Virus record (IMG/VR): IMGVR_UViG_3300033149_002977
Span: 1 to 24,978 of that record
Source of the DNA: a virus
Length of the DNA: 24,978 bases
Reading direction: 5' to 3' (one strand)
Shown: positions 2,856-24,978 of the stretch, in pieces
How the letters are laid out: each line of letters starts with the position of its first letter
Numbering within the stretch: the first letter of the stretch is position 1
Notes under the pieces: model-generated
Seen by the model: the letters and a program-made list of their open reading frames with translations, nothing else
The model's database searches: none
What the model was told of the DNA's origin: nothing
Program-made: the position numbers and the translations under genes

Positions 2856-2871
2856 TTTAGTCTTAATTTAT

Positions 2872-2911
2872 AAAAAGGGTTATAGATGAAATACTCTATA
2901 TCCCTTTTTTT
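2872..2911 (+). terminator. Rho-independent terminator, probably bidirectional
   Basis: A 15-base arm at 2872-2886 pairs with 2895-2909 with one mismatch around an 8-base loop. The arms carry A5 on the left and T-run on the right, so it could act from both directions. It closes the small-gene block. Confidence 0.8.
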
Positions 2912-3166
2912 ATCCCCCCATCCTGTCAACTTGTCTCTTTTTTCTTTAACTCCAATAAAAACAAATCATCCGTTTCTAATAATCCTGTCATTATGTCAGT
3001 GTTTTAAACGAGGTTTCAGTTAGGTATAGGTAAGTGGGATAAAATCAAGGGATTATACTATCTTTCACTTTCAAATGTGAATTGTATTGTATTGAAGATT
3101 GTGTTGTGTTTGGCGTGATTGTAAAACTAATAAAAACAATAAATTGTGGTATATGTAAAAAATGGC
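2912..3166. other. Intergenic stretch with one imperfect direct repeat
   Basis: I see no supportable ORF on either strand. A 16-base imperfect direct repeat (ATCCTGTCA, three variable bases, TGTC) occurs at 2920-2935 and 2982-2997, matching at 13 of 16 positions. The stretch leads into the candidate promoter of the following small gene and could hold an operator; nothing else is evident. Confidence 0.4.
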
Positions 3167-3195
3167 TTGATTTTTTCTTTTTTTGTTATTATATT
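3167..3195 (+). promoter_or_regulatory. Candidate sigma70-type promoter
   Basis: TTGATT (3167-3172) and TATATT (3190-3195) are separated by 17 bases, about 50 bases before the next gene. The region is T-rich, so a chance match is possible. The same stretch also nearly matches the Bacteroidetes -7 element (TAnnTTTG). Confidence 0.4.
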
Positions 3196-3251
3196 TTGTC
3201 AGCAATTTTTTAGTTCTTTTAAAACCTTAAAATAGGAAGGGGGTGTATAAT

Positions 3252-3437
3252 ATGAAGGGATATTCTTACAAAATTCAAGGTAATCAATTGATTATTACAG
3301 TTGATTTGAATTCTAATCTTGGTCAATCTCAATCGGGTAAATCTACACTTATTGCAAGTTCATACGGCAAGGATGTGATTGCTCATAAGGGACAGGTTAT
3401 TAATCTCAATATTAATGTTTACAAACCTAACCGTTAA
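3252..3437 (+). CDS. Small conserved-type protein with SGKSTLIAS segment, 61 aa
   Basis: ATG 3252 is preferred over an in-frame GTG at 3243, because the purine-rich site GGAAGGGGG (about 3235-3243) overlaps the GTG and is well spaced for the ATG. The product is a short beta-rich domain: KIQGNQLIITVDL, then QSGKSTLIASSYG, then a C-terminal strand ending NVYKPNR. The GKST string looks like a P-loop, but 61 residues cannot hold an NTPase. I recall a widespread small family with the pattern SxSGKSxxxASTxG and no known function. The gene stands alone with its own candidate promoter and terminator, which suggests independent regulation. Confidence 0.65.
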   Translation: MKGYSYKIQGNQLIITVDLNSNLGQSQSGKSTLIASSYGKDVIAHKGQVINLNINVYKPNR

Positions 3438-3454
3438 TCAAGCAATTCAAAAAC

Positions 3455-3484
3455 AGCCCGGGTCATTTGGCTCGGGCTTTTTTG
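3455..3484 (+). terminator. Rho-independent terminator
   Basis: AGCCCG (3455-3460) pairs with CGGGCT (3473-3478) around a 12-base loop, followed by a run of six T. It ends the 61-residue gene 18 bases after its stop codon. Confidence 0.85.
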
Positions 3485-3571
3485 TTTTCTGGCAGGTAAA
3501 TCGTTTTACTACGCTTGCTGGTGCAATTTTTTAGTGTAAGATATATGAAACTATGGCTTTTTGTTTTCTAT

Positions 3572-3600
3572 GGCTCTCAGGCGTTCCTGGGGGCTTTTTT
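3572..3600 (+). terminator. Hairpin with T-run, terminator-like
   Basis: The arms at 3572-3581 and 3586-3595 form 10 pairs including three G-T pairs around a CGTT tetraloop, followed by T6. No gene lies just upstream, so it may be a second-chance terminator or the end of an untranslated RNA. Confidence 0.65.
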
Positions 3601-3616
3601 ATGCTCGGATAGATTG

Positions 3617-3662
3617 AAAAATGCGTTTTAAGGCGTCTATCAGGCTCGCTGGTGCATTTTTA
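3617..3662. terminator. Inverted repeat AAAAATGC/GCATTTTT, possible bidirectional terminator
   Basis: The perfect 8-base arms at 3617-3624 and 3654-3661 enclose a 29-base loop. Flanking A and T runs would allow termination in either direction. It is weaker than the two hairpins to its left. Confidence 0.4.
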
Positions 3663-3782
3663 GAAGGCTGGTAATGGTTTTATATGGTTTTTGAGACAAA
3701 CGGGCTGTATGAGGCGTTTTTGAGCGTTTTTTGAAGGTTTTGTTGTTTTATGACTGCTCATTACTTATTTATTATATTTGTT

Positions 3783-3963
3783 CCCGCTTTATTTATCATA
3801 TCTATCATTATCATATCTATTATTATCTTATCTATCACTTTATTTATTGCATCTATTATACACTTCACTATTCACATCTTCTATTTTATTATTTTACATT
3901 TATATCCTATTATTTTACATTTATATCATATTGAATTAAAATTGAGAAAACAAAAAAAGCGGG
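3783..3963. repeat. Nearly G-free tract with 15-bp tandem repeats, flanked by an 8-bp inverted repeat
   Basis: CCCGCTTT (3783-3790) and AAAGCGGG (3956-3963) are perfect inverted repeats. Between 3787 and 3932 the + strand has a single G, at 3849. Inside are three tandem 15-base units (3794-3808, 3809-3823, 3824-3838) of consensus TATCATATCTATYAT. There is also a 20-base exact direct repeat at 3887-3906 and 3908-3927 with a 21-base period. The layout recalls an iteron array beside an easily melted region, as at some replication origins, but no initiator gene is visible. Confidence 0.6.
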
Positions 3964-4084
3964 CTGGTATTATAAATTGAATAAAAACAAGCACTTGCAA
4001 AAGGTTGAGGCACATTGACGCCCGCGTGTGAAATCGTAATGGTTTGTTCCAATCCCCAATATAAGTCTAAATTTCACTTTTTGG

Positions 4085-4160
4085 TAGGGTGGTATATAAG
4101 AATATTTCAAAAAAGAATTCTTATTTAAGTTTCAAATAGGGTGGTATGGTAAAATATTTC
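4085..4160 (+). repeat. Paired 24-bp imperfect direct repeats (TAGGGTGGTAT...ATATTTC)
   Basis: Copies at 4085-4108 and 4137-4160 share an exact 11-base left half and the end AATATTTC or AAATATTTC, at a 52-base spacing (about five helical turns). A 10-base palindrome, AAGAATTCTT, lies between them at 4113-4122. This looks like paired protein-binding sites upstream of the membrane-protein/terminase genes. Confidence 0.5.
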
Positions 4161-4287
4161 TGGTGTAAAAGGGGGGAAATGTAAATAGTTGTTATTATTG
4201 AAATTAGGGTAAAGGGGGTAAAAAACAAGGGAACAAAAGGGGGATTTATGTGTTAAAGAGATAGGGATAGTATAAGGAGAAGTGTAA

Positions 4288-4533
4288 ATGTATTTGGGAA
4301 TAGTATTGAATGTGTTGGTATTTTTTTGTTTAGTGTTTATATTTTTTTGTTATCTTATATTGAGGCGGATTTATATGGTTATAGTGAGGGGGTATAGAGC
4401 GGAGAGAGAGAATAGGAAAAGGAATACGGAGATGGCACAGGATATAGAATATTTGAAGAACAATGTGCTTACGGAGGAGGAAAGAATTGCGATTGAGAAA
4501 AGTAAAATATTTGGGGGGTTAGATGATTATTAA
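4288..4533 (+). CDS. Small membrane protein, 81 aa
   Basis: AAGGAG lies about 10 bases before ATG 4288. Residues 3-25 are a strongly hydrophobic segment (Leu, Val, Phe, two Cys). It is followed by RRIYMVIVRGYRAERENRKRN, so the positive-inside rule puts the polar C-terminal helix (acidic, coiled-coil-like, ending FGGLDDY) in the cytoplasm. The size and layout could suit a holin, antiholin or accessory assembly protein, but no sequence mark identifies one. It stands alone between the long non-coding stretch and the repeat array before the terminase genes. Confidence 0.65.
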   Translation: MYLGIVLNVLVFFCLVFIFFCYLILRRIYMVIVRGYRAERENRKRNTEMAQDIEYLKNNVLTEEERIAIEKSKIFGGLDDY

Positions 4534-4546
4534 TATTACATCAAGA

Positions 4547-4658
4547 ATTAAAACTATTACAGAAAATTAAAATCATTACGATTAGAGTTATTATAATTAG
4601 AACTATCATATAGATAATAACGATATAAATAGTAGTAATAAAAGGTTAGAACTGTTAT
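4547..4658 (+). repeat. Five 14-bp degenerate direct repeats upstream of terS
   Basis: Copies start at 4547, 4566, 4581, 4596 and 4645, with consensus RTTARAAYTRTTAY. Three spacings are close to 15 bases (19, 15, 15) and the last copy sits 49 bases on, just before the terminase small subunit gene. In several phages the small terminase binds repeated sites near its own gene (pac or cosB), so this is a candidate packaging site. AT-richness makes chance similarity possible. Confidence 0.5.
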
Positions 4659-4679
4659 AAGATAAATACAGGATAAACT

Positions 4680-9033: not shown

Positions 9034-10047
9034 ATGAATAATAATAATCAAGTTAATCAAAGTCAAACTAATCAGGTTCAACAGGATGGTAATGATACGC
9101 AAGTTGCTCCCGTATCAAAACCTAAACCTGTTGATCCTTATGAATCTATTGAAGTTGATTTAAAGTCACTCCTTATTGAAGAACCCGATAAGGAGCAAGA
9201 CGAGCCAAAGAATACCTCCGATGACCAGACTACAAAGTCTGAACAGGGAGAGCAGAAACAAGACCAAGAGGGGCAACCAGAGAAGCAACAGCAACAAGAA
9301 GGGCAAGAAGAAGGGCAAGAAAAGTTAGAACAAAAAGAACCCGAGACTGAACCTGAACTGCCTAAAATTAAAGTTGCGGATAAAGAGTTAACGGAAGAGG
9401 AAATACTTGAAGCCCTTAAAGATTCTGAAAACAAAAAGAAATGGCAGAAAGAGAACACTCAAAAAGCCCAAGAAGTTGCTGAACTTCGCAAGGTTGCAGA
9501 ACCGTTGGTGGAGTTTGTTAAGTTGGTTAAAAATTCACCTGATTTGATTGAAATTCTTGAAGATACTCTTATTGAAGCGGACGCAGACGAGAAAATCCAA
9601 AAAGCGTTCAAGACTGCATTCACAGTTGATATTGATAAATACCGAAGTCCATATCTGGATGAACTTGAAAAACTGAAAGAAGAGAAAGAACGAATTGAGG
9701 CGGAGAGGGCGTTCAATGAAGATGCACAACAACTTAAACAGAAATACAAACTTAAAGACTCTGATATTGACGAAATAGTCCAGTATGCGGAAAACCGATA
9801 TAAAGAATCAGGTGTAGTTTTAACACTTGAAGAGGCTTATAAGGCTCTGGATTACGACCGAAAAGTTAAAGAACTTGAACGATTGAAAAAAGAACAGCAA
9901 AACCGCACATTACAAACTCCAAAGACGGTTGAAAAGAATGTAGGGGCAACACAAATTAAAACTCCGCCTAAAAAGATTAGAGATTACGAAGAGATTGATT
10001 TAGGGGAGTTTAAAGATAAACTTTTTACTGGTGAAACTACATATTAA
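9034..10047 (+). CDS. Capsid scaffolding protein, 337 aa
   Basis: Scaffold proteins shape the procapsid and are then released or digested. Residues 1-30 are Asn/Gln-rich, 45-110 are a low-complexity Glu/Gln/Lys/Pro stretch, and 110-160 contain a typical core (KIKVADKELTEEEILEAL followed by a lysine-rich helix). Residues 165-300 are long amphipathic coiled-coil-like helices, and the C-terminus is a short helix (DLGEFKDKLFTGETTY) of the kind that contacts the coat protein. There are no cysteines. The position between portal and major capsid gene is exactly right. AAAAGGAG precedes ATG 9034. I see no protease signature here or next door, so release probably does not need cleavage. Confidence 0.85.
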   Translation: MNNNNQVNQSQTNQVQQDGNDTQVAPVSKPKPVDPYESIEVDLKSLLIEEPDKEQDEPKNTSDDQTTKSEQGEQKQDQEGQPEKQQQQEGQEEGQEKLEQKEPETEPELPKIKVADKELTEEEILEALKDSENKKKWQKENTQKAQEVAELRKVAEPLVEFVKLVKNSPDLIEILEDTLIEADADEKIQKAFKTAFTVDIDKYRSPYLDELEKLKEEKERIEAERAFNEDAQQLKQKYKLKDSDIDEIVQYAENRYKESGVVLTLEEAYKALDYDRKVKELERLKKEQQNRTLQTPKTVEKNVGATQIKTPPKKIRDYEEIDLGEFKDKLFTGETTY

Positions 10048-12281: not shown

Positions 12282-12569
12282 ATGGCGATTTATTATGTTT
12301 TACTTGATGGAACAGATAATACTTATATAACAGGAACATCTGATACCCCCCAGACAATAAAGTTTGAGGATTTAAAAGATATTGAGGGTAATCAGTTACC
12401 AACTGGGGGGTTTTCTTCTATACCGTTTATGATAATAAAACGATTACCTGAAAACCAAAGAGATGCTGTAATTACAAACATTACAAAAACACAGTTTCAG
12501 GTTTATATGATGGATTACGGAGATTTATCTATCACACAGGGTAAATATTTACTTATTATAAAAGATTAA
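12282..12569 (+). CDS. Small beta-domain virion protein, 95 aa, paralogous to the N-terminus of the 15612 protein
   Basis: Its ATG follows the previous stop directly, with AAAGG upstream. No signal peptide is present. Residues 17-95 align without trouble to the first 90 residues of the protein at 15612: TGTSDTPQT versus TGTSDSPQT, GNQLP versus GNSLP, and MDYGDLSITQGKYLLII versus NDYGYIGSGQILCNLLI. So the domain exists here on its own and there fused to an adaptor domain. It is beta-rich and probably a small structural module. The function is unknown; the neighbourhood indicates the tail or neck. Confidence 0.65.
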   Translation: MAIYYVLLDGTDNTYITGTSDTPQTIKFEDLKDIEGNQLPTGGFSSIPFMIIKRLPENQRDAVITNITKTQFQVYMMDYGDLSITQGKYLLIIKD

Positions 12570-14228: not shown

Positions 14229-14414
14229 ATGGCTCGTTTAAAACCAAAAGGCAAACGGGGGCGTGTAGCAGTAAAGAGATTAGGGCGGACTTATAAAACT
14301 GGAAACTTTGAAAAGATAGCAAAGAAAGCAGCCAAAAAATATGGTAGTAAAGAAGCAGGTAAAAGAGTTGCTGCTGCGGTTTACTGGAAAAAAGTTAAAA
14401 AGAGAAAAAAGTAA
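14229..14414 (+). CDS. Very basic small protein, 61 aa
   Basis: About 40% of the residues are Lys or Arg, distributed through the protein (MARLKPKGKRGRVAVKRLGR..., ending KKVKKRKK). The second half has the pattern KIAKKAAKKYGSKEAGKRVA followed by AAVYWKK, a helix of a type I recall in small basic phage proteins. GAGGTG precedes ATG 14229. It probably binds DNA or RNA electrostatically, either as a virion DNA-condensing protein or as a regulator. It sits among tail genes, which favours a virion component. It ends one base before the next gene's ATG. Confidence 0.65.
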   Translation: MARLKPKGKRGRVAVKRLGRTYKTGNFEKIAKKAAKKYGSKEAGKRVAAAVYWKKVKKRKK

Positions 14415-14415
14415 T

Positions 14416-15597
14416 ATGAGATTGTTAAAAATTTTTTTTATATTCTTATTCCCTGTTTCTATATTTGCACAGGAAGTTTTGTATGAGTATAATCCTATAC
14501 AGGTAAAGAGAACAAATAGGGGATATGTATATACTCAAACGATAGCAAGACCGTTTAAAGTTATTAAGCAAGGGGAATGGATACTTAATATAAGCAGGAA
14601 GGATACGATTAAATATAGAATTAAAGGTATTAAGAATTATGTCGGGAAAGGTATAAATGGTATATGGCAGGATAACTTTGAAGTTTCAGATGTAGATAGT
14701 TTCACATACGAAGTTGAAGGGGTTGATATTGAAGCAGATACAGGGAGTTATATTACTAGTCCTATTACAAAGGAAAAAATCAAACTGAAACCGCATTTCA
14801 AGTTCAAGAAAAATGGCAAAGTGATAGCAACTCTTACTGATGTAAAGGCTCTTAATAAGTATAGACTTCCTGTTGAGTTGAAAACGGTGAAGAAAGTTGG
14901 CAAAAAGGCTGTTCATAAGTTTGAATATGATGTTAGATTTGTTGACCCGACTTGGAGTTGGCAACCAGATGCGACGGATGGGAAGGATACTTATGTTATC
15001 TCAAATAATCCTACAACTAACTATGGAACTTCCGAGGATTTATATGTTATGGCAAATAATTATGACGGAACAGTTTTGATTGAGTTTCCTGGTTTAGTTG
15101 ATTCTTTAACGGGAGGACCAGTAGTTGTTGATTCTGCGTATATTAGATTGTATGCTCATATGATTTCTGTAGTAGGAGGTTCTTTTAATGTATTTGCAAC
15201 TCCTTTGATAGAAAGTTGGAATGAGGGAACAGTGACATATAATACGAAACCAGACTCAATAGGAAATACAACTTATAATAGCGATACTCTTTCTTCGAGT
15301 ATAGGAGTGGATGTTTGGTGGAATTTTAATGTTACGAAATCGGTGCAAGCATTTGCGAGTGAGATTCTTTCTTATTATGGATGGGAGATAGCGATGGTTG
15401 AATTGACTGATAATAGACAATTGGCGTGGTATTCGTCTGATTATGCTACCGCAAGCGAAAGACCAAAGATTGAAGTTTATTATACAATTCCAAGTGGTGA
15501 GGGTGAATTAAAAGGAATTATTCCAAAAGTATATAAAGGCACAATAATTCCAAAAGTAGATAAAGGTGTAATTAAACCAAAAGTTAGAGCACCTTAA
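14416..15597 (+). CDS. Secreted-type DNRLRE/CBM96-like appendage protein, 393 aa
   Basis: ATG 14416 is chosen because it begins a clean signal peptide (MRLLKIFFIFLFPVSIFA, Gln19 at +1). The frame is open 25 codons further left, but that would run through the basic gene. Residues 20-180 are a beta-rich N-terminal domain. Residues 183-368 fit the DNRLRE/CBM96 layout: WSWQPDATDGKDTYV, NPTTNYGTSEDLYV, IEFPGL, SAYIRLYAH, IESWNEGTVTYNTKP, and WYSSDYATASERPKIEVYY near the end. The tail has three short repeats of (K)G(x)I-x-PKV. In bacterial secreted proteins this domain binds polysaccharide, so a carbohydrate-binding appendage is likely. The ribosome-binding site is weak. Confidence 0.75.
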   Translation: MRLLKIFFIFLFPVSIFAQEVLYEYNPIQVKRTNRGYVYTQTIARPFKVIKQGEWILNISRKDTIKYRIKGIKNYVGKGINGIWQDNFEVSDVDSFTYEVEGVDIEADTGSYITSPITKEKIKLKPHFKFKKNGKVIATLTDVKALNKYRLPVELKTVKKVGKKAVHKFEYDVRFVDPTWSWQPDATDGKDTYVISNNPTTNYGTSEDLYVMANNYDGTVLIEFPGLVDSLTGGPVVVDSAYIRLYAHMISVVGGSFNVFATPLIESWNEGTVTYNTKPDSIGNTTYNSDTLSSSIGVDVWWNFNVTKSVQAFASEILSYYGWEIAMVELTDNRQLAWYSSDYATASERPKIEVYYTIPSGEGELKGIIPKVYKGTIIPKVDKGVIKPKVRAP

Positions 15598-16622: not shown

Positions 16623-16641
16623 ATAAAAGAGAGTGAATAAG

Positions 16642-17172
16642 ATGAAAAAATTTATATTAACAGTTATCTTTTTAAGTATTCCTGTTATAGTTTTAGCACA
16701 GAACAAATACAAAACTTTACCTAATTCTTATTTCTCGGGAACTTTAACTAATACCGCAACCGATAAATACCCTATTGATACTGTTCTCATTGATTTTACC
16801 GCTTACTCTAATTATCTCAATGCGGATACCTGTCTAATATATTTTGAAGTTGATACAGTAGCAGGCAAATACGGTGGGAATGCTTCCGATAGTCTTGGAC
16901 GGAACGCGGTTAGATTACGCTATCAACCAGCAATTAGAATTCCACCTTTGCTTGAATCTTATAAGTCTGCTCTATGGAATGATACACTTCTAAATGTTCC
17001 TGCGGTTTCTCTTACGGATTCTGTGCCTAATATTAATTCTATAAACATCTATAAATTCCAGATTGAATACCCAATGTATCGTTTATATATTGACCATTTT
17101 TACGGGGATACTTCAAAAGTTAATCCACAAGCAAGAAGTTCTTATAAAGGATTTGTAGGATTAAGAAAATAA
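16642..17172 (+). CDS. Secreted-type hypothetical virion protein, 176 aa
   Basis: ATG 16642 is chosen over an in-frame GTG at 16633, because AAAGAGAG sits about 9 bases upstream and the ATG begins a clean signal peptide: MKK, hydrophobic core, VLA, Gln20 at +1. The mature part is beta-rich (NSYFSGTLTNTATDKYPIDTVLIDF, INIYKFQIEYPMYRLYIDHFYG), with many Asp, Thr and Tyr and one cysteine. I recognise no family. It is followed after 6 bases by the nozzle-like gene, suggesting they are made together and may interact in the tail. Confidence 0.6.
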   Translation: MKKFILTVIFLSIPVIVLAQNKYKTLPNSYFSGTLTNTATDKYPIDTVLIDFTAYSNYLNADTCLIYFEVDTVAGKYGGNASDSLGRNAVRLRYQPAIRIPPLLESYKSALWNDTLLNVPAVSLTDSVPNINSINIYKFQIEYPMYRLYIDHFYGDTSKVNPQARSSYKGFVGLRK

Positions 17173-17178
17173 AACAAT

Positions 17179-19692
17179 ATGAATAAAATTATAACAAAAA
17201 TATATCTAATTATTTGTGCTTTTGTATTTTTGTATTCTTGTATTTATTCTCAACCGAGATATATTGATATACGAGATTTCAAGGGTGTATTTACGAATGC
17301 GGATTTAGAGGATATACTGCCTGAATACTTTGTGGTGATGCAAAATCTTCGTCCCGTTTATGGGAAACTTGTTAAGACATTTGGGTTTGGAGATATAGGT
17401 TGGGATAGTAATGTAGGAGTTGATAATTTTGCGGTTTATATTAATTCTCATTTGACCAATCCGAGTGGAGTTAGATATTTCGCTTATACGGTTATGCCTG
17501 TTCCTTATGATACTTTAATTTTAGAATACTGGGATACTTCAACGAATGATTGGGAACAATTATCATTAGACCAAACTTATTATCATAACAACGGAATAAA
17601 CCCTGTTATTCAGGCAGATGGAGTTATTAGATTTCTTGCGGGGAATGTTGGTGAAGTTGATGGTAATGAAGCAAAAGGAGTATGGTATGGATATGTAGAT
17701 AGAAAGTTTTTTGATGAAGGGCTTACTGCACAAGGGTTTATAGTATCGCAAGTTCCCTTAATTCAAAGACCAGAAATAGATGCTTCTGTTTATGCGAAAC
17801 TTGATAGTGGGAGTTTTACTGAAACTAAATATTATAAGTATTCTTGGATTTATGATGGAAACCAAGAATCATTACTTTCAAATGATGGATTGGTAGTTGA
17901 TTATCTTGATGGGCAATATGGTATTCTTAAATTCCCGTTTTCTATATCGGGGCATACTTGGAGGATAACAGGATTAAATATTTATAGAAGCGACAACCAA
18001 GATGGTATATATCATAAAATTCAAACCCTTGATTTTTTACGAACCGCAGAGGATAGTTGTTTAGGTTCACCTGATAACACGGCTTATAATGGTGAATACA
18101 GAATATATGTTCCGCATAGTAATTTCACTTCTTACGCTTTTGATGTTGTTAATAACTCTTATGAGATAGATATAGGTGGAACGCTGATTAAACTTATGCC
18201 TAATATGGGTAGTGGGCAAGAAATTGTTAAAGTTGATTATTCAGAGCGACCTTTACAATACGACATCTGGAACACTTCTTGGACATTATACGCAGATACA
18301 GGTTCGGGGAGTTATGATTATGAAGTGGCAAGTGGTTCTGATAGTGCGTTTGCATCTAAACAAATGGTTATAACAAATATTGATATGGGGAATAGACACC
18401 TTTCTGGGGCTTATATATTTCTTGATAAAAGCACAGTTTATTCTAATACAGTTAGAGAAATTCGCATTGCAGATAAAGTATTCGGAAAAGCTATACATTT
18501 TGTTGATACTCTTACTCTCTCTGATGCAGATAGCACGCTTGCAAAACCCTGGCATTTGTTAGAATCTGGAAACGGGTTATACTGGGTAGATAAAAGAAAT
18601 GATTATGCAAACTATTATTTCCTTGATGCAGGATTGCTTGAAGGTGTAGAACATCCTTATCCTGATGAAGTTTCTCTTAAAGTTAATGGTAAATTTGCTC
18701 AAATTATAGGTAATAGACTGTGGCAGGCTAATATTGTTCTTGACCCTGGTGGAAAGAATGAAGTTCACGAGGATTGGGTTTCTTATTCTGAAATAGGTAA
18801 ATATGATGTTAATCCTGTTTCTAATGTTATTTCATTTGCAAATAGAGGTGCAGGGGAAATAACAGGATTGGCGGAATTATTAGGAAACCCTGTAATACTG
18901 AAAAAGAACAATATCTCAATTATTAATATTCGTTCTAATCCCACTAATCCTGCTTTGTGGAATATTATAGAATCTGTATATAACATTGGAAATATTGCCC
19001 CCTATGGATATATTACTGTTCTTGGGGATTTATATGTATGTTATTATGATGGTATCTATAAATTCAGTCCTAATGACCTTGCGGAAAGTGCAAATACACC
19101 GAGCAAGAAACTAAAAATTACAACACCTATTGAAGATATTTATTTAAACCTTACTCTATCTGAAAAAGAAAACATCAGAAGTGCTTATAATCAAAAGTAT
19201 AATGAAATAATATTCCTATTAGGAGATAATCTCTGGGCTTACAATATAAGTGAAAATTACTGGCGACAGATAAAAATGGCAATATCTTTTAATCCTATAA
19301 TTATGGTTCTGGATGATACTGCTAATGTGATAGTTTATAATAGTTCTGATAATAAGTTCTACTCTTCAAATATCAAAGGGGATACAAGAATAGATTTAAT
19401 AACAAAAACTTTTGCTATATCAGATGAACGGAATGAACCTGTGCAGTATCTCTGGGTGACTCATAAAGAAACTCCAAATCCGTATTCAGACCCGCAGGTT
19501 TATGTGTATATTAACAACGATTCTACTGTTTCTAAAACATTATCTTTGACTTCATCTGATACTTTAAAAACAGAGAAACTTTATATAGGACAAAGGTGTA
19601 AAAAATTTAGATTAAGATTTTACACCATTGACCAAGATAAAAACGATTTTGAATTACATAGAATTAAAATACAATATGAGGGAAACCAATGA
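17179..19692 (+). CDS. Tail nozzle-like protein with a signal peptide, 837 aa
   Basis: Nozzle proteins form the lower tail tube of short-tailed phages; the length is near T7 gp12 (about 790). The mature N-terminus PRYIDIRDFKGVFTNADLED, then LPEYFVVMQNLRPVYGKLVKTFGFGD, is the characteristic start of this family. The rest is a long series of beta-strands with Trp/Tyr (YRSDNQDGIYHKIQTL, NGKFAQIIGNRLW, YVCYYDGIYKFSPND), consistent with propeller-type domains. Ahead of it lies a hydrophobic segment (residues 8-20) and IYS with Gln25 at +1, which is not expected in a cytoplasmically assembled tail. LYSC at 18-21 is a poor lipobox. There is no clear ribosome-binding site. Its stop overlaps the next start as ATGA. 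Confidence 0.75.
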   Translation: MNKIITKIYLIICAFVFLYSCIYSQPRYIDIRDFKGVFTNADLEDILPEYFVVMQNLRPVYGKLVKTFGFGDIGWDSNVGVDNFAVYINSHLTNPSGVRYFAYTVMPVPYDTLILEYWDTSTNDWEQLSLDQTYYHNNGINPVIQADGVIRFLAGNVGEVDGNEAKGVWYGYVDRKFFDEGLTAQGFIVSQVPLIQRPEIDASVYAKLDSGSFTETKYYKYSWIYDGNQESLLSNDGLVVDYLDGQYGILKFPFSISGHTWRITGLNIYRSDNQDGIYHKIQTLDFLRTAEDSCLGSPDNTAYNGEYRIYVPHSNFTSYAFDVVNNSYEIDIGGTLIKLMPNMGSGQEIVKVDYSERPLQYDIWNTSWTLYADTGSGSYDYEVASGSDSAFASKQMVITNIDMGNRHLSGAYIFLDKSTVYSNTVREIRIADKVFGKAIHFVDTLTLSDADSTLAKPWHLLESGNGLYWVDKRNDYANYYFLDAGLLEGVEHPYPDEVSLKVNGKFAQIIGNRLWQANIVLDPGGKNEVHEDWVSYSEIGKYDVNPVSNVISFANRGAGEITGLAELLGNPVILKKNNISIINIRSNPTNPALWNIIESVYNIGNIAPYGYITVLGDLYVCYYDGIYKFSPNDLAESANTPSKKLKITTPIEDIYLNLTLSEKENIRSAYNQKYNEIIFLLGDNLWAYNISENYWRQIKMAISFNPIIMVLDDTANVIVYNSSDNKFYSSNIKGDTRIDLITKTFAISDERNEPVQYLWVTHKETPNPYSDPQVYVYINNDSTVSKTLSLTSSDTLKTEKLYIGQRCKKFRLRFYTIDQDKNDFELHRIKIQYEGNQ

Positions 19693-20306
19693 CAGGTTCG
19701 CAGATGTTAACAGAAGTGAGAAAAATATTAGAAGACCCAGATGGAATGAGGTTTTCTGATGAAGATATTTATAATTCTCTCACTTCGGCGGAACTTAAAC
19801 TTGCAGTATTAATTGATAAAGCATATCTTACAGAATTGAGATATGTAGATACAGATTTAACTTTTACAAATGGAAAATGTCCTGTGTCTTCTTTATCTAA
19901 AACTATTTTAAACGGGCAGGATGGATTGATTACGGTCAAAAGTAGTGCGGGATACTATGCAAGGGTTCTGGATATTAAGAATCTAACAGATTTAAATAAT
20001 ACATACACTCAACCTATTACGGATGTGTTTCCTGCTTGTTATATTCTTAATGATAACATCTACATTCACCCGACAACTATTACACAAGGGGATGTGTTCT
20101 ATTATCGTGTTCCGCTGGGTATTTCTGGGTCTCAAAGTAGTATTCTCAATTCTGTTTTACATCCTTTAATTATTAACTATGCATCTGCGGAACTTTTAGC
20201 AATAGATGAAAAACCAACTAAATCTCAAATACTTGAAGAGAGAACTAATATGTCTATTAAAACTTTAAACACTATTATAGTTGAAAGAAAGTTAGAGAGG
20301 TTATAA
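19689..20306 (+). CDS. Adaptor-like protein, 205 aa
   Basis: ATG 19689 overlaps the nozzle stop by four bases; GAGGGAA upstream is the ribosome-binding site. The layout parallels the C-terminal part of the 15612 protein: a helix pair (TEVRKILEDPDGMRFSDEDI, then LTSAELKLAVLIDKAYL), strands (LRYVDTDLTFTNGKCPV), a hydrophobic strand with ACYILNDNIYIHPTT, FYYRVPLGI, then a C-terminal helical segment with LINYASAELLAIDE. This is the pattern of P22 gp4-like adaptors, so the phage carries two. They may form successive rings, or one may belong to the nozzle. No signal peptide is present. Confidence 0.65.
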   Translation: MTGSQMLTEVRKILEDPDGMRFSDEDIYNSLTSAELKLAVLIDKAYLTELRYVDTDLTFTNGKCPVSSLSKTILNGQDGLITVKSSAGYYARVLDIKNLTDLNNTYTQPITDVFPACYILNDNIYIHPTTITQGDVFYYRVPLGISGSQSSILNSVLHPLIINYASAELLAIDEKPTKSQILEERTNMSIKTLNTIIVERKLERL

Positions 20307-20309
20307 AAA

Positions 20310-21047
20310 ATGGCTTATTGGTGGATGCCGTTTGTATCACCTGTGGTTCAAGCAGGTGGGTCTTTATATGGATATTTAACACGCAAAAAAAGAAGTTTAC
20401 CTGATTTCTCTTCAACTCCCTATGGAAAAATGTTAAGAAAACGAGCAGTTGAAGGGACTTACTCACCTTATGCAAAACAGAGAATTCTTGGTAGTGTGGC
20501 GAAACAATTAGGGCAAGCAGAACAACAACGGAAAGCAGAATTAAGAAGTCAATTATATTCTAAACTCGGGCCGAGTATAGCAACTGAACGAGTAATATCC
20601 GAACCTACACGGGAACGAATGCGAGGGCTTGCAGATATTACCACTCAAATTGAAACCCAGAATGAGTTATCCAAACAACAAGCACGAGAAGAGTTTGCAA
20701 AACGGCAATATGAATATAACATACTCCGAAGACAACAAAAGGAACAAGCATTAGCAGATTTAATTTCTGGGCTTTCAACTGCAACTGCAAATGCATTTAT
20801 GGGATGGCTTAAAAAGAGACAAATAGATATGGAAACTTTTGATGCTTTATCGGAGGCAGACCTTGAAGAATTATTAATTAGAGTTATGAGTGCTAAAACA
20901 CCAGAAGAGAGACAAAAAGCAGTTGAAGATTATATGAAAAAGAAACAAAGAAATATAGGAAAGTTTATTTATAGATATAAGGAGACTAAAAAATCTAAAC
21001 CAGCTTATACACCAGATTTAAGTATTTATAATTATCCATTAGACTAA
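20310..21047 (+). CDS. Internal virion protein-like helical protein, 245 aa
   Basis: The N-terminus MAYWWMPFVSPVVQAGGSLYG is hydrophobic and glycine-rich, followed by RKKR. Residues 40-160 are long, Gln/Arg/Glu-rich amphipathic helices (QLGQAEQQRKAELRSQLYSKLG, then EFAKRQYEYNILRRQQKEQ). A small hydrophobic stretch lies at about 153-168, and the C-terminus is basic and Pro/Tyr-rich. This is the build of podovirus ejection proteins (P22 gp7/T7 gp14 type): a short membrane-active head with long helices. The assignment is by architecture and position after the nozzle genes, not by a recognised family. GAGAGG precedes ATG 20310. Confidence 0.55.
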   Translation: MAYWWMPFVSPVVQAGGSLYGYLTRKKRSLPDFSSTPYGKMLRKRAVEGTYSPYAKQRILGSVAKQLGQAEQQRKAELRSQLYSKLGPSIATERVISEPTRERMRGLADITTQIETQNELSKQQAREEFAKRQYEYNILRRQQKEQALADLISGLSTATANAFMGWLKKRQIDMETFDALSEADLEELLIRVMSAKTPEERQKAVEDYMKKKQRNIGKFIYRYKETKKSKPAYTPDLSIYNYPLD

Positions 21048-21065
21048 ACACGGAGATGTATATAG

Positions 21066-21854
21066 ATGGCACAAGGTATAGCAAGATATTATAAATTAAG
21101 GTTATTGCAAGATATAATAAAACAAGCATTTGGAGAACCCGAACCTAAATCCCCACAGGAGAAGATGGCAGAGGAGAAGTATAAGGCATATGAACAATTT
21201 AAGACAGGAGGAGAACAATCATTAACTCCATATCAAAGATATTTGTTATTCGGTGAAAAACCAACAAAGGAAAAACCAAAAGAATTACCACCAACTCAAC
21301 AATTAACTAAACAGGCAACAGATTGGCTAATTCAAAGTCAAGGAAATGTTGAAAGTTTGCCCAAACACCAACAGGCTATTATATACAAAGTGTTCCCACA
21401 TTTAAGACCACAAGAACCAGAATCTCTATTACCATCTGCACTTGAAGAAGAACGAGTAGAGGAAATAGGAAAAACATATGGTTCGGGGGCAGCATTAGAC
21501 TATATGGCAAAACAACTTGGTTGGACTAAAATATCTGATAGATTAACTCAAATAGATAATCTAATAAGGAGAATATCGCAAGAGGATTTGTCTAAATATG
21601 AAACAACAAGAATGTTGAGATTAGGTGGTGGAGGTTTGGATTTAGATGCTATAAGAAAAATGAGAGAACAGCAACTTAAAGATTTAATGAAAAAAAGAGA
21701 TATATTGAGAAAAGCACAAGAGGAAGGTATTAAGTATGTAGAACAGGTTGAGTATGGAGAAAAATATAAATTGCCTTTTTTAAGAACATCTGAAAGTCCT
21801 AAAAAATCTATACCTGGCTTTAAACCTATTGATGAGATTTTAGGAGGGCAATAA
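21066..21854 (+). CDS. Hypothetical helical virion protein, 262 aa
   Basis: The protein is helical and charged with repeated Pro/Glu/Lys-rich linkers (FGEPEPKSPQEKMAEEKYKA, EKPTKEKPKELPPTQQ) and a glycine cluster LRLGGGGLDLD at about residues 185-195. There is no signal peptide, membrane segment or enzyme motif. GGAG lies about 11 bases before ATG 21066. The stop shares a base with the next start (TAATG at 21852-21856). Because it lies between the ejection-type protein and the giant polyvalent-type gene, an internal virion role is likely. No family is recognised. Confidence 0.55.
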   Translation: MAQGIARYYKLRLLQDIIKQAFGEPEPKSPQEKMAEEKYKAYEQFKTGGEQSLTPYQRYLLFGEKPTKEKPKELPPTQQLTKQATDWLIQSQGNVESLPKHQQAIIYKVFPHLRPQEPESLLPSALEEERVEEIGKTYGSGAALDYMAKQLGWTKISDRLTQIDNLIRRISQEDLSKYETTRMLRLGGGGLDLDAIRKMREQQLKDLMKKRDILRKAQEEGIKYVEQVEYGEKYKLPFLRTSESPKKSIPGFKPIDEILGGQ

Positions 21855-22360
21855 TGAATTATAACCCAAAAGATATTTCCAGTGCTCCTGTTCAAAATCC
21901 TGTATTAGATACTCTAAAAAGTATTTCAGAAGGTAACATTCGTGCTTTACATAGACAACTTTTACTTGATGGGTATTTAATTCCAGAAGATTATGATACA
22001 TTTAAAGAAACACTTGAAGCCGACCCTGTTAATGTAGGGGCGATATATAATGAAATTAGGAATACTTATGATGTAGGTTCATTTGAGCAATTTTATAATT
22101 CTTTATTCCCCCAGGCAGTTCCATCTGTTCAAGCATCAGCATACAGGAAAGTTAGAACTCAATTAATACAAAGTGAACTGGAAGATAGGTTAAAAGAGGA
22201 ACAACAATTGCAAATAGAAGAGGAACGAGGTAAACTTGCTCACGGATTAAAACTTCTTGACCCGCTTAATTATTCTGTCTATGAGAAAATGTATCAAGAG
22301 GGACAACCGCCAGAAGTTATGCAGGCTTATTATCAAGAGAAACAGAGGCAGAAAGAATAA
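21854..22360 (+). CDS. N-terminal part of a giant virion protein, ending at an in-frame TAA, 168 aa
   Basis: Residues 1-168 are helical and polar, with LLLDGYLIPEDYDTFKETLE (about 36-55) and a Gln/Glu-rich helix (LEDRLKEEQQLQIEEERGK) near the end. The frame stops at TAA 22358-22360, and the same frame is then open for 872 codons to the window edge, without any ATG, GTG or TTG for the first 69. It therefore reads as the first part of one protein of more than 1040 residues cut by a single stop. The stop may be a real gene end, a mutation, a sequence error, or a readthrough site. TAA is the usual stop in neighbouring genes, so wholesale recoding is unlikely. Confidence 0.6.
   Translation: MNYNPKDISSAPVQNPVLDTLKSISEGNIRALHRQLLLDGYLIPEDYDTFKETLEADPVNVGAIYNEIRNTYDVGSFEQFYNSLFPQAVPSVQASAYRKVRTQLIQSELEDRLKEEQQLQIEEERGKLAHGLKLLDPLNYSVYEKMYQEGQPPEVMQAYYQEKQRQKE
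22358..22360 (+). other. In-frame TAA splitting a long open frame
   Basis: The TAA is flanked on both sides by coding-like sequence in the same frame (GAA TAA AGA). The frame is open both upstream from 21854 and downstream to 24978, and no usable start codon lies within 207 bases after it. Confidence 0.6.
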
Positions 22361-22567
22361 AGAATTAAAAAACCTTCTGGTGCAGGTGCAAGATATGAGA
22401 TAGAACGACCTTCTGAAAAAGGTATTACTGCGATTACTTCTACCGCACCTAAACCCCCTGAACAATTCAAAGATATAGATGAATTTATTAAGAATGTAAA
22501 AGCGGATTTAGAAACTCCCGAAGGGATTGCTACAAAAATATCTAATTTTATTAATACTCCTATCCCT

Positions 22568-24978
22568 ATGTATATTGATGGTTTCAAAAAACTAATAGAA
22601 AAACAATATGAAAAACCCCTGCCCGAAGATGAAAACAAAACAATAAAAGTGGCAAAAGAAATTCAAAGAGGACTTCAAGAAGCGTGGCAAGAACTTGGAC
22701 TATCAATGCTTACTCCAACTAATTTAGGACTTGCTGTTATCACAGGTCTTACTTCCACACTTGGGACGGCAGGAAAGGCAGTCAGTCGTGTTTTGGGTGC
22801 AATATTTTCAGCAACTATGGCTAATCATATACCTGACCAAGTTGAAGAGGTGATAGATGGAATTGAGAAGGGAGATGCCTATAAGATTACAAAGGGAATT
22901 GCAGGAGCAATAGAACTTGGAACTTTATCTTTTCTTGCAGGAAAACACGCAGTTAAGGGTGAAGTTATTGCAAAAAAGGAAGCAAGGATTAAAAAGAAAG
23001 TTGATAAAATTCTTGATAAACTTCCAGAAGAACAACGAAATCGCATTAAGGCAGTTATAGATGCTATTGACAAAGAAGAATTAAGAAGACAAGAAAAAGA
23101 GAAATTAATGGAAAAAGTTGCAGAGAAGCCAGAGGTAAAGCCATCAGAAAAAGAAATTAAAGTTCCAGAAACAAAAGAGGATATTAAAGCAACATTAGAA
23201 GACGATTTACTTGCTGGAAAAATATCAGAAAAGCAATACAAAAAGATAGGAGATTTATTTGGAATTGAATTACAGTCAAAACGGGATTTGATTGAAGATA
23301 GAATAAGTAGAGGAGTTAGTGAAAATATAAGAAAGATTTTAAAGGAAAAATGGGAAAAAGGTGAAATTACCCAAAAAGATTTCAATAAACTTGCGGATTT
23401 GTATGGAGTAGAAAAACTTAAAGAAAGAATTATTAAAATAAAATATACTCCTGAAAAAGAAACTAAAATTCCTGTTAAAATTGACAAGGGGAAAAAAACA
23501 GTTTCTAAAAAGAAAAAAGTTGAAGGTGTAATTCCAGATGAGGTTGTGGATTTAACTTATGATGAATTTATTAATAAATATAAAGATATTCTTATTGAAA
23601 AAAGTAAAAAATTTCCATCTGATTATGCTGAATATGTTAAATCTAATGTAAATAGATTGTTAGAAAATGCTTACCTTGATAGGGTTTATAATGCCTACAA
23701 AAGTGGTAAGAGAATTCCTGTTAAAATTTTAAGACAGAAAGTCAGAAGATTAGGCGAGGAAACAAAGCAGACGGTGAAACAATACATAAAAGAACGAGAA
23801 AAGGTTGAAGTGGGTGAAAGAAAAAAAGAGAAGATAGCAAAAGTGAAAGAGAAAAAAATTGTTAAAAAGCCTACTAAAAAAGTTCCTGTTATTCCCACCG
23901 AAAAAGAAGCAATTAATCTAAAAGAGATAAAAGATGTAGATAAACTTCGTAAAGTTCTTATTGATATGGGGCACGATAAGAAAACAGTTAATTCCTTGTC
24001 AGATGAGGGGATTAGAGCATTAGCAGAGCAGGAGAGAAAAATATATGAAGTAAGTGAAATAGTTAAAACAGAAAAGATTGAGCCTATTTCTGAAGGAGAA
24101 AATCCATATTTAAGAATGCCTATAGAAAGAGTAAAACGAGATGCTGATCAAGGTGTTGAACTTGCAAAGGAGGCATTAAAAGTTAGAGAGAAAAAGGCTG
24201 TAAAATCTAAAGTAACACAAAGAGAAGAAAAAGAAGCAATAAAAGAAGGACTAAAAATTGAGTCAAGAACAGTAGAAGATTGGAGGGAGTTGTTTAATAA
24301 GGAAAGCAAAGAGATAAAATTAAAAAAACCAGAAAAACCTGTTGTAAGAGTGGATTATGTTGCACCAATGGAAGAAGGAGGACGATGGGGATATATATTA
24401 AAAGATGGCTCTTATTCTAATGGGCACTGGGTTTTGAAGGAAAAGTTTATAAAAGAAGACCTAAAGAAGAAATTTCTGGAACCTGAAAGATTAGAACCTT
24501 CTATTGAAAGTATTATTAAAAAGGGAAATCAAAAAGATGCACAAGAAATTGGACAAAGTGAGTTTGAAGGGAAAAAAGTAATTGTTTATAGAAATATTGA
24601 TGGAAATTTATCTTATTTTGATAAGAAATATATTGATTATTTTAAAAAACATATTAAATATTTTAAACTTAAGACGGGAAAGTCTAATGATCCTGCGGTT
24701 ATTTATTCTGGCGATGAAATCGCTGGTGTTTTAATGCCGATAGCGGATGAAAAACTTTTAAAGAAGTTAGAAGTAAGAGGGAAAGAGAAGGTTAAACAAA
24801 AAGTAGGAGAAATTGTAAAAGAGAGAGAGGTTACGGGAGAACCAAAAGTAGGAGACAAACTTGTAATTAAAGAAACAGGGGAAACTATTAAAATAATTAA
24901 AGATTATGGTGACAAAACCCCCAAAGGTCATAAACCAGACCCATCTGGTTGGATGGAAGTTGAAGATTTAAACACTGG
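22568..24978 (+). CDS. Giant Lys/Glu-rich polyvalent-type virion protein (partial, runs off the right edge)
   Basis: The frame is open from 22361 to the window end, 872 codons. The first ATG is at 22568 and has no ribosome-binding site, so the true start is probably that of the upstream 21854 frame. Order of parts: a hydrophobic Gly/Ala-rich helical region (22700-22960, LGLSMLTPTNLGLAVITGL), suited to a membrane-active ejection protein; long Lys/Glu helices; two tandem helical-hairpin repeats (23201-23269 and 23342-23413, 144 bases apart); a basic linker; then from about 24380 a beta-rich region with GYILKDGSYSNGHW and a later ...PAVIYSGDEIAGVLMPI that recalls sliding-clamp domains. Large podovirus proteins ejected with DNA often have this layout. 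No catalytic motif is visible before the cut. Confidence 0.6.
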   Translation, partial: MYIDGFKKLIEKQYEKPLPEDENKTIKVAKEIQRGLQEAWQELGLSMLTPTNLGLAVITGLTSTLGTAGKAVSRVLGAIFSATMANHIPDQVEEVIDGIEKGDAYKITKGIAGAIELGTLSFLAGKHAVKGEVIAKKEARIKKKVDKILDKLPEEQRNRIKAVIDAIDKEELRRQEKEKLMEKVAEKPEVKPSEKEIKVPETKEDIKATLEDDLLAGKISEKQYKKIGDLFGIELQSKRDLIEDRISRGVSENIRKILKEKWEKGEITQKDFNKLADLYGVEKLKERIIKIKYTPEKETKIPVKIDKGKKTVSKKKKVEGVIPDEVVDLTYDEFINKYKDILIEKSKKFPSDYAEYVKSNVNRLLENAYLDRVYNAYKSGKRIPVKILRQKVRRLGEETKQTVKQYIKEREKVEVGERKKEKIAKVKEKKIVKKPTKKVPVIPTEKEAINLKEIKDVDKLRKVLIDMGHDKKTVNSLSDEGIRALAEQERKIYEVSEIVKTEKIEPISEGENPYLRMPIERVKRDADQGVELAKEALKVREKKAVKSKVTQREEKEAIKEGLKIESRTVEDWRELFNKESKEIKLKKPEKPVVRVDYVAPMEEGGRWGYILKDGSYSNGHWVLKEKFIKEDLKKKFLEPERLEPSIESIIKKGNQKDAQEIGQSEFEGKKVIVYRNIDGNLSYFDKKYIDYFKKHIKYFKLKTGKSNDPAVIYSGDEIAGVLMPIADEKLLKKLEVRGKEKVKQKVGEIVKEREVTGEPKVGDKLVIKETGETIKIIKDYGDKTPKGHKPDPSGWMEVEDLNT

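What the first reader, a model, noticed from the sequence alone, without database searches (positions are those of the whole stretch)
21854..24978. One in-frame TAA interrupts a frame of more than 1040 codons
The 168-residue gene at 21854 ends at TAA 22358-22360. The same frame then continues for 872 codons to the window edge, with no start codon in the first 69 and no ribosome-binding site at the first ATG (22568). A separate downstream gene is hard to start. Alternatives are a recent nonsense mutation, an assembly error, stop-codon readthrough, or a suppressor tRNA encoded elsewhere in the phage.
Basis: seen in the sequence. Interest (0 to 1): 0.62.

Follow-up and report, generated by a model that had tools for sequence, protein, structure and literature searches.

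The report
Giant phage gene interrupted by stop
In this phage fragment one stop codon cuts a very long virion-type gene that is a single unbroken gene in its closest relatives, most likely a recent mutation or a sequence error in this one record rather than a special decoding trick.

Summary
A 168-codon ORF (21854-22360) ends at TAA 22358-22360. The same frame then stays open for 872 codons to the end of the record, with no ATG, GTG or TTG in the first 69. The window is the whole 24,978-bp virus record.

The two halves are one gene. In the nearest relative, L016, a single 1691-aa ORF covers both halves collinearly. The window ORF also starts as several relatives' giant ORFs do, overlapping the upstream stop by one base. 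In 20 of 21 relatives the giant ORF at this place is unbroken as far as it is seen.

The startless stretch codes as strongly as any gene here, so it was translated from upstream until recently. Ochre reassignment or strong suppression is unlikely: most genes here end in TAA, and no tRNA was found.

My reading is a record-specific nonsense change (mutation or consensus error) in a giant virion-type gene. Reads would separate the two.

One lead keeps a bolder reading alive. In four Cellulophaga phages the ORF upstream of the giant gene meets it out of frame at an A9G run, near the same boundary, with 47 startless codons.

The parts
21854..22360 (+). N-terminal part of the giant gene, 168 codons and TAA; strong SD (GGAGGG) before its ATG, which overlaps the upstream stop by one base
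   Evidence: 29% identity to residues 22-142 of L016's 1691-aa protein
21989..22123 (+). part of the N-terminal module (YDxF / YDVGSFEQF repeats), residues 46-90
   Evidence: similar to the N-termini of giant ORFs L013, L018, L005 and L006 and to phi18:3 gp122 / phi19:3 gp128: 0 to 15 of 1000 shuffles reach the score
22358..22360 (+). the interrupting TAA
   Evidence: L016 and L010 have sense codons at the aligned place
22361..22567 (+). 69-codon open stretch without ATG/GTG/TTG; gene-like codon use; no detectable homology to relatives
22568..22570 (+). first in-frame ATG after the stop, no ribosome-binding site visible; a restart here would keep all of the conserved segment
22361..24976 (+). 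continuation of the giant gene, 872 codons, runs off the record
22610..23044 (+). conserved segment of the continuation (residues 84-228 after the stop), aligned to L016 residues 222-366 in one ORF with the N-terminal part
21066..21854 (+). upstream gene (262 aa), at the position of the gene before the giant ORF in relatives; no sequence match found
20310..21047 (+). upstream gene (245 aa), conserved anchor found in 12 of the 14 relatives tested
19689..20306 (+). adaptor-like protein (Pfam SU10_adaptor)

Best explanation
21854-24976 is the 5' part of one giant gene (at least 1,041 codons here; 1,400-2,860 aa seen at the same place in relatives with long reads of it) for a virion-associated, polyvalent-type protein at the end of the structural module of a tailed phage. 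In this record the frame carries a single ochre codon at the end of the N-terminal module. It is most likely a recent nonsense change present in the sampled virus population, or a base error in the consensus; the data cannot say which. If real, the main product is the 168-residue N-terminal fragment and little or none of the long protein is made. Shown: in-frame continuity, coding character, one ORF in the nearest relative, position in the operon. Inferred: that the change is recent, that the long protein is lost, and the virion role (from Cellulophaga phages and from domains of more distant relatives).
For: L016 has one 1691-aa ORF covering both halves (orfA E 1e-5, continuation E 7e-12, same frame and order). 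L010, which matches L016 across the junction (E 1e-6), is also one ORF there. Start overlap with the upstream stop is the same as in L016 and seven other listed relatives. 20 of 21 listed giant ORFs are unbroken as far as seen. Only frame of 320 with a startless run of 60 codons or more. Codon use of the startless run is gene-like. The twin contigs L040/L041 (99.9% identical) show that this gene is found broken in single records: L040 lacks 34 nt and its frame breaks.
Against: No near-identical record was found, so a fixed, functional split cannot be ruled out. The stop falls where a predicted helix ends and disorder begins (poor model), a place where a split could be tolerated. The 69 startless codons have no detectable homology to relatives, so a restart at ATG 22568 would lose nothing known to be conserved. 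The genome search with the continuation scored no match in the L016 record at E 0.001, against tblastn and phmmer, so the L016 link rests on those two. Cellulophaga phages show a break near the same boundary.
Confidence: 0.66

Rival explanations
1. Functional split: the 168-residue N-terminal module is its own protein and the long protein is restarted downstream, at ATG 22568 or at a non-standard start near the stop, by translational coupling.
For: The conserved part of the long protein begins after ATG 22568. In four Cellulophaga phages a short ORF precedes the giant virion protein gene and is annotated separately. The stop sits at a predicted helix/disorder border.
Against: No start for 69 codons, no SD at 22568; 1 of 320 frames. 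The startless run has the strongest coding score of all, unexpected for an untranslated spacer. L016 and L010 are unsplit.
Confidence: 0.15
2. Programmed readthrough (or bypass) of the TAA makes much N-terminal module and a little full-length protein.
For: Same frame on both sides, coding use unbroken. Precedent for in-frame stops under purifying selection in bacteria, with the mobilome class over-represented: PMC7918605 (abstract and the first part of its section 2). The Cellulophaga A9G junction would give a similar short/long pair if real.
Against: TAA followed by A is, from general knowledge, an efficient stop; the same TAA-AGA ends gene 12282-12569 here. RNA folding after the stop is unremarkable (z -1.57). 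No relative keeps a stop there.
Confidence: 0.1
3. Ochre reassignment or an ochre suppressor tRNA in the phage.
For: Only that the rest of the genome is not held.
Against: 17 of 24 other listed genes end in TAA; 0 tRNAs in the window and in 27 relative loci. The reassignments named in the passages I read of PMC11210395 are TAG and TGA.
Confidence: 0.02
4. Two unrelated genes that happen to share a frame.
For: One third of neighbouring genes share a frame by chance; 16633-17172 and 17179-19692 do so here.
Against: That pair has an ATG 2 codons after the stop, this one 69; L016 shows one protein.
Confidence: 0.03

Closest known systems
Polyvalent proteins of phages (Iyer et al. 2017, PMC5512222)
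   Same: Very long protein at the end of the structural module. Giant ORFs at the same place in relatives carry domains of this class: ddrB-ParB and InPase (L005, L013), ddrB-ParB (L015), ART-PolyVal (L018, L025), LPD38 (L025); the paper lists InPase, DdrB-ParB and LPD38 as phage-type.
   Different: Neither the 1,041 codons seen here nor the complete L016 protein has a significant domain of this class, so the window is linked by gene order and the N-terminal module only.
Cellulophaga phages phi18:3, phi19:3, phi46:3 (and phi13:2), Pachyviridae: short ORF plus giant virion protein
   Same: In three of the four the short ORF's N-terminal module resembles orfA (0 of 1000 shuffles for gp122, 2 of 1000 for gp128) and lies directly before a giant protein annotated as virion structural; gp123 of phi18:3 is annotated from MS/MS. 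The long frame is startless near the junction.
   Different: There the two parts are in different frames meeting at an A9G run; here they are in the same frame with a stop. phi13:2 has a different upstream module joined at the same run.
In-frame stop codons inside bacterial genes (Belinky et al. 2021, PMC7918605)
   Same: A single in-frame stop in an otherwise gene-like frame.
   Different: Those were required to be shared by orthologues of two or more species; this one is seen in a single record.

Membership tests
Phage polyvalent proteins | several characteristic domains (ddrB-ParB, InPase, ART, MPTase, LPD types) in one polypeptide | tested here: not met
   No significant domain in the visible part or in L016; met in L005, L013 and L025. 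The visible part is incomplete.
Phage polyvalent proteins | long gene at the end of the structural module, same gene order as relatives with such domains | tested here: met
Nonsense-interrupted gene | homologues uninterrupted at the same place | tested here: met
   L016 and L010; other relatives show only position and an N-terminal match
Nonsense-interrupted gene | stop confirmed in reads | not testable with these tools
   no reads held
Programmed readthrough | stop conserved among orthologues | tested here: not met
   no relative with a stop there; no near-identical record
Stop-codon reassignment | the codon is depleted as a terminator | tested here: not met
   TAA is the commonest terminator
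Independently started downstream gene | start codon with initiation signal near the stop | tested here: not met

The most novel reading that the evidence does not exclude
The boundary between the N-terminal module and the body of these giant virion proteins is a recurrent programmed translational break: a stop in this phage, an A9G slippery run (direction -1, the A AAA AAG type known from dnaX, recalled) in four Cellulophaga phages, so that a free N-terminal module and a little full-length protein are made from one message. In phi13:2 a different module has been exchanged right up to the run and still needs the same shift.
Probability: 0.1. Interest if true: 0.7.

Novelty: new member of a known kind. 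Interest (0 to 1): 0.33.

Why it matters
It warns that automatic calls in phage metagenomes will list a 168-aa protein and a truncated neighbour where there is one giant virion-type protein. It links an uncharacterised N-terminal module to giant, polyvalent-type phage proteins. If the bolder reading were right, phages would tune the dose of a giant virion protein by a break after its first module, which cultured Cellulophaga phages would make directly testable.

Tried and rejected
Close relatives of the continuation, of orfA or of 21066-21854 by single-protein scans of viral contigs: none. The continuation, and protein 17179-19689, against 50,697 phage records: none. Portal protein in genome contigs, single and as alignment: none. 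A second profile scan brought back only L016. Rfam: none. RNA structure after the stop: not significant. AlphaFold2 of the N-terminal 398 residues (3-row alignment): mean pLDDT 43, used only as a hint of where order ends. Recalled resemblance of the L016 C-terminus to LPD38: not supported. phi46:3's giant gene shows a second break farther on, which raises the chance that indel errors explain the A9G junction too; the paper of those genomes is not held, so their sequencing method is unknown to me.

Dropped before counts: for the 20 of 21 tally I took the loci with an ORF of at least 400 aa following the anchor genes in the same order, plus L040. L006, L017, L020 and L034 (giant ORF seen for under 300 aa, all open at the locus end) and distant loci with another gene order (e.g. 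L014, L049-L052, L057, L058, L061, L063, L072, L076) were left out; the choice was made by eye.

Full report
Setting. The window is an entire virus record of 24,978 bases, linear, probably a fragment. It carries a large terminase (Terminase_3), portal and major head protein matches, tail-like genes, an SU10-type adaptor, and then the reported frame, which runs off the end. G+C is 33%. No tRNA and no Rfam family was found.

Observation. The frame is as described. Codon-usage log-odds stay positive in this frame on both sides of the TAA and through to the end, and are mostly strongly negative in the other two plus frames. For 22361-22567, the part without a start codon, the score is 28.3; 71 in-gene windows of the same length (left out of their own training) all score lower, and windows in larger gaps between genes score at most 1.1. 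In 83 sources with 1.02 Mb, 320 stop-opened frames of 300 codons or more exist; only this one has 60 or more startless codons at its 5' end. Inside genes such runs are common (592 of 4082). So the stretch behaves as the inside of a gene.

Relatives. Single-protein scans found few relatives. A profile of the 837-aa protein (17179) gave 80 loci. L016 is nearest: 48% identity in that protein and the same order downstream. There one ORF of 1691 aa follows. tblastn places orfA residues 46-168 at L016 8944-9306 (E 1e-5) and continuation residues 101-200 at 9586-9876 (E 7e-12), same frame and order; phmmer aligns the joined protein as one domain, residues 46-778 to 22-720. Shuffling supports both sides (0 of 1000 each) but not the 69 startless codons, against L016, L010, L013, L005, L018 or L006 (70 to 941 of 1000 shuffles as good). 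L010 matches L016 across the junction (E 1e-6) and is one ORF. A different search of the L016 record with the continuation alone reported nothing at E 0.001; I give more weight to the two independent programs that agree, but the link is distant.

Position. The giant ORF follows the small genes in the same order in many relatives. Of 21 that I listed, 20 are unbroken as far as seen (424 to 2858 aa); eight (L015, L016, L023, L032, L033, L036, L040, L041) begin with the one-base overlap seen at 21854. The exception, L040, is 99.9% identical to L041 but lacks 34 nt, which breaks its frame. So this gene is found broken in single records, by error or by mutation.

What the protein is. Giant ORFs at this place in L005, L013, L015, L018 and L025 carry ddrB-ParB, InPase, ART-PolyVal or LPD38 domains, the set described for phage polyvalent proteins (PMC5512222, passages). 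The window part and L016 carry none. The N-terminal module is PHROG 24532 in L013 and L018, though orfA itself does not reach that profile. The same module is a short ORF directly before the giant virion protein in Cellulophaga phages phi18:3, phi19:3 and phi46:3; the phi18:3 giant protein is annotated from MS/MS.

The parallel. In these phages the long frame is open for 47 startless codons before its annotated TTG, back to a run of nine A and a G where the short ORF is one frame away. phi13:2 has an unrelated upstream module joined at the same run. In the fetched stretches of phi18:3, phi19:3, phi46:3 and phi13:2 it is the longest homopolymer. This is what a -1 shift at an A AAA AAG site, polymerase slippage, or a miscounted homopolymer would give. 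A second break in phi46:3 favours error somewhat. I found no paper on it in two library searches, whose listings only I saw, and those searches were not built to find it.

Verdict. One gene, one record-specific stop. I put 0.66 on a nonsense change (true allele or consensus error), 0.15 on a functional split, 0.1 on programmed readthrough, the rest on less likely readings. Ochre recoding is contradicted by the use of TAA as terminator in 17 of 24 other listed genes.

Literature seen: PMC5512222 (passages), PMC7918605 (abstract and the first part of its section 2), PMC11210395 (passages); others only as listings. That UAA followed by A terminates well, and the dnaX site, are recalled.

Noticed in passing
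L085 9168-9309 (phi18:3), L084, L087 7168-7309, L088 6250-6391: In four Cellulophaga phages the frame of the giant virion protein is open but startless for 47 codons back to an A9G run where the upstream short ORF lies one frame away; phi13:2 has a different upstream module joined at the same run.
   Followed up: partly
L087 11594-11948 (phi46:3): The giant virion gene is broken a second time, with 118 startless codons before the annotated gp121.
   Followed up: partly
L040 16452 / L041 14605-14640: Near-identical phage contigs differ by 34 nt in a linker of the giant gene; L040's frame is broken.
   Followed up: partly
window 11466, 12580, 14416, 16642, 17179; L016 4462; L003 11421; L004 11463: Several genes of the virion module begin with Sec signal-peptide-like N-termini. 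A simple rule flags 11466 and 16642 in the window and the 17179 homologue in L016; the others are by eye. Homologues of 17179 in L002 and L003 lack it.
   Followed up: partly
window 2856-4679: About 1.8 kb between called genes with low coding scores in all plus-strand frames; minus strand not scored.
   Followed up: no
whole window: Of 16 main genes 13 end in TAA, 3 in TGA and none in TAG.
   Followed up: no
window 14341-15597: Protein with a CBM96 carbohydrate-binding module (E 4e-13), perhaps a fibre.
   Followed up: no
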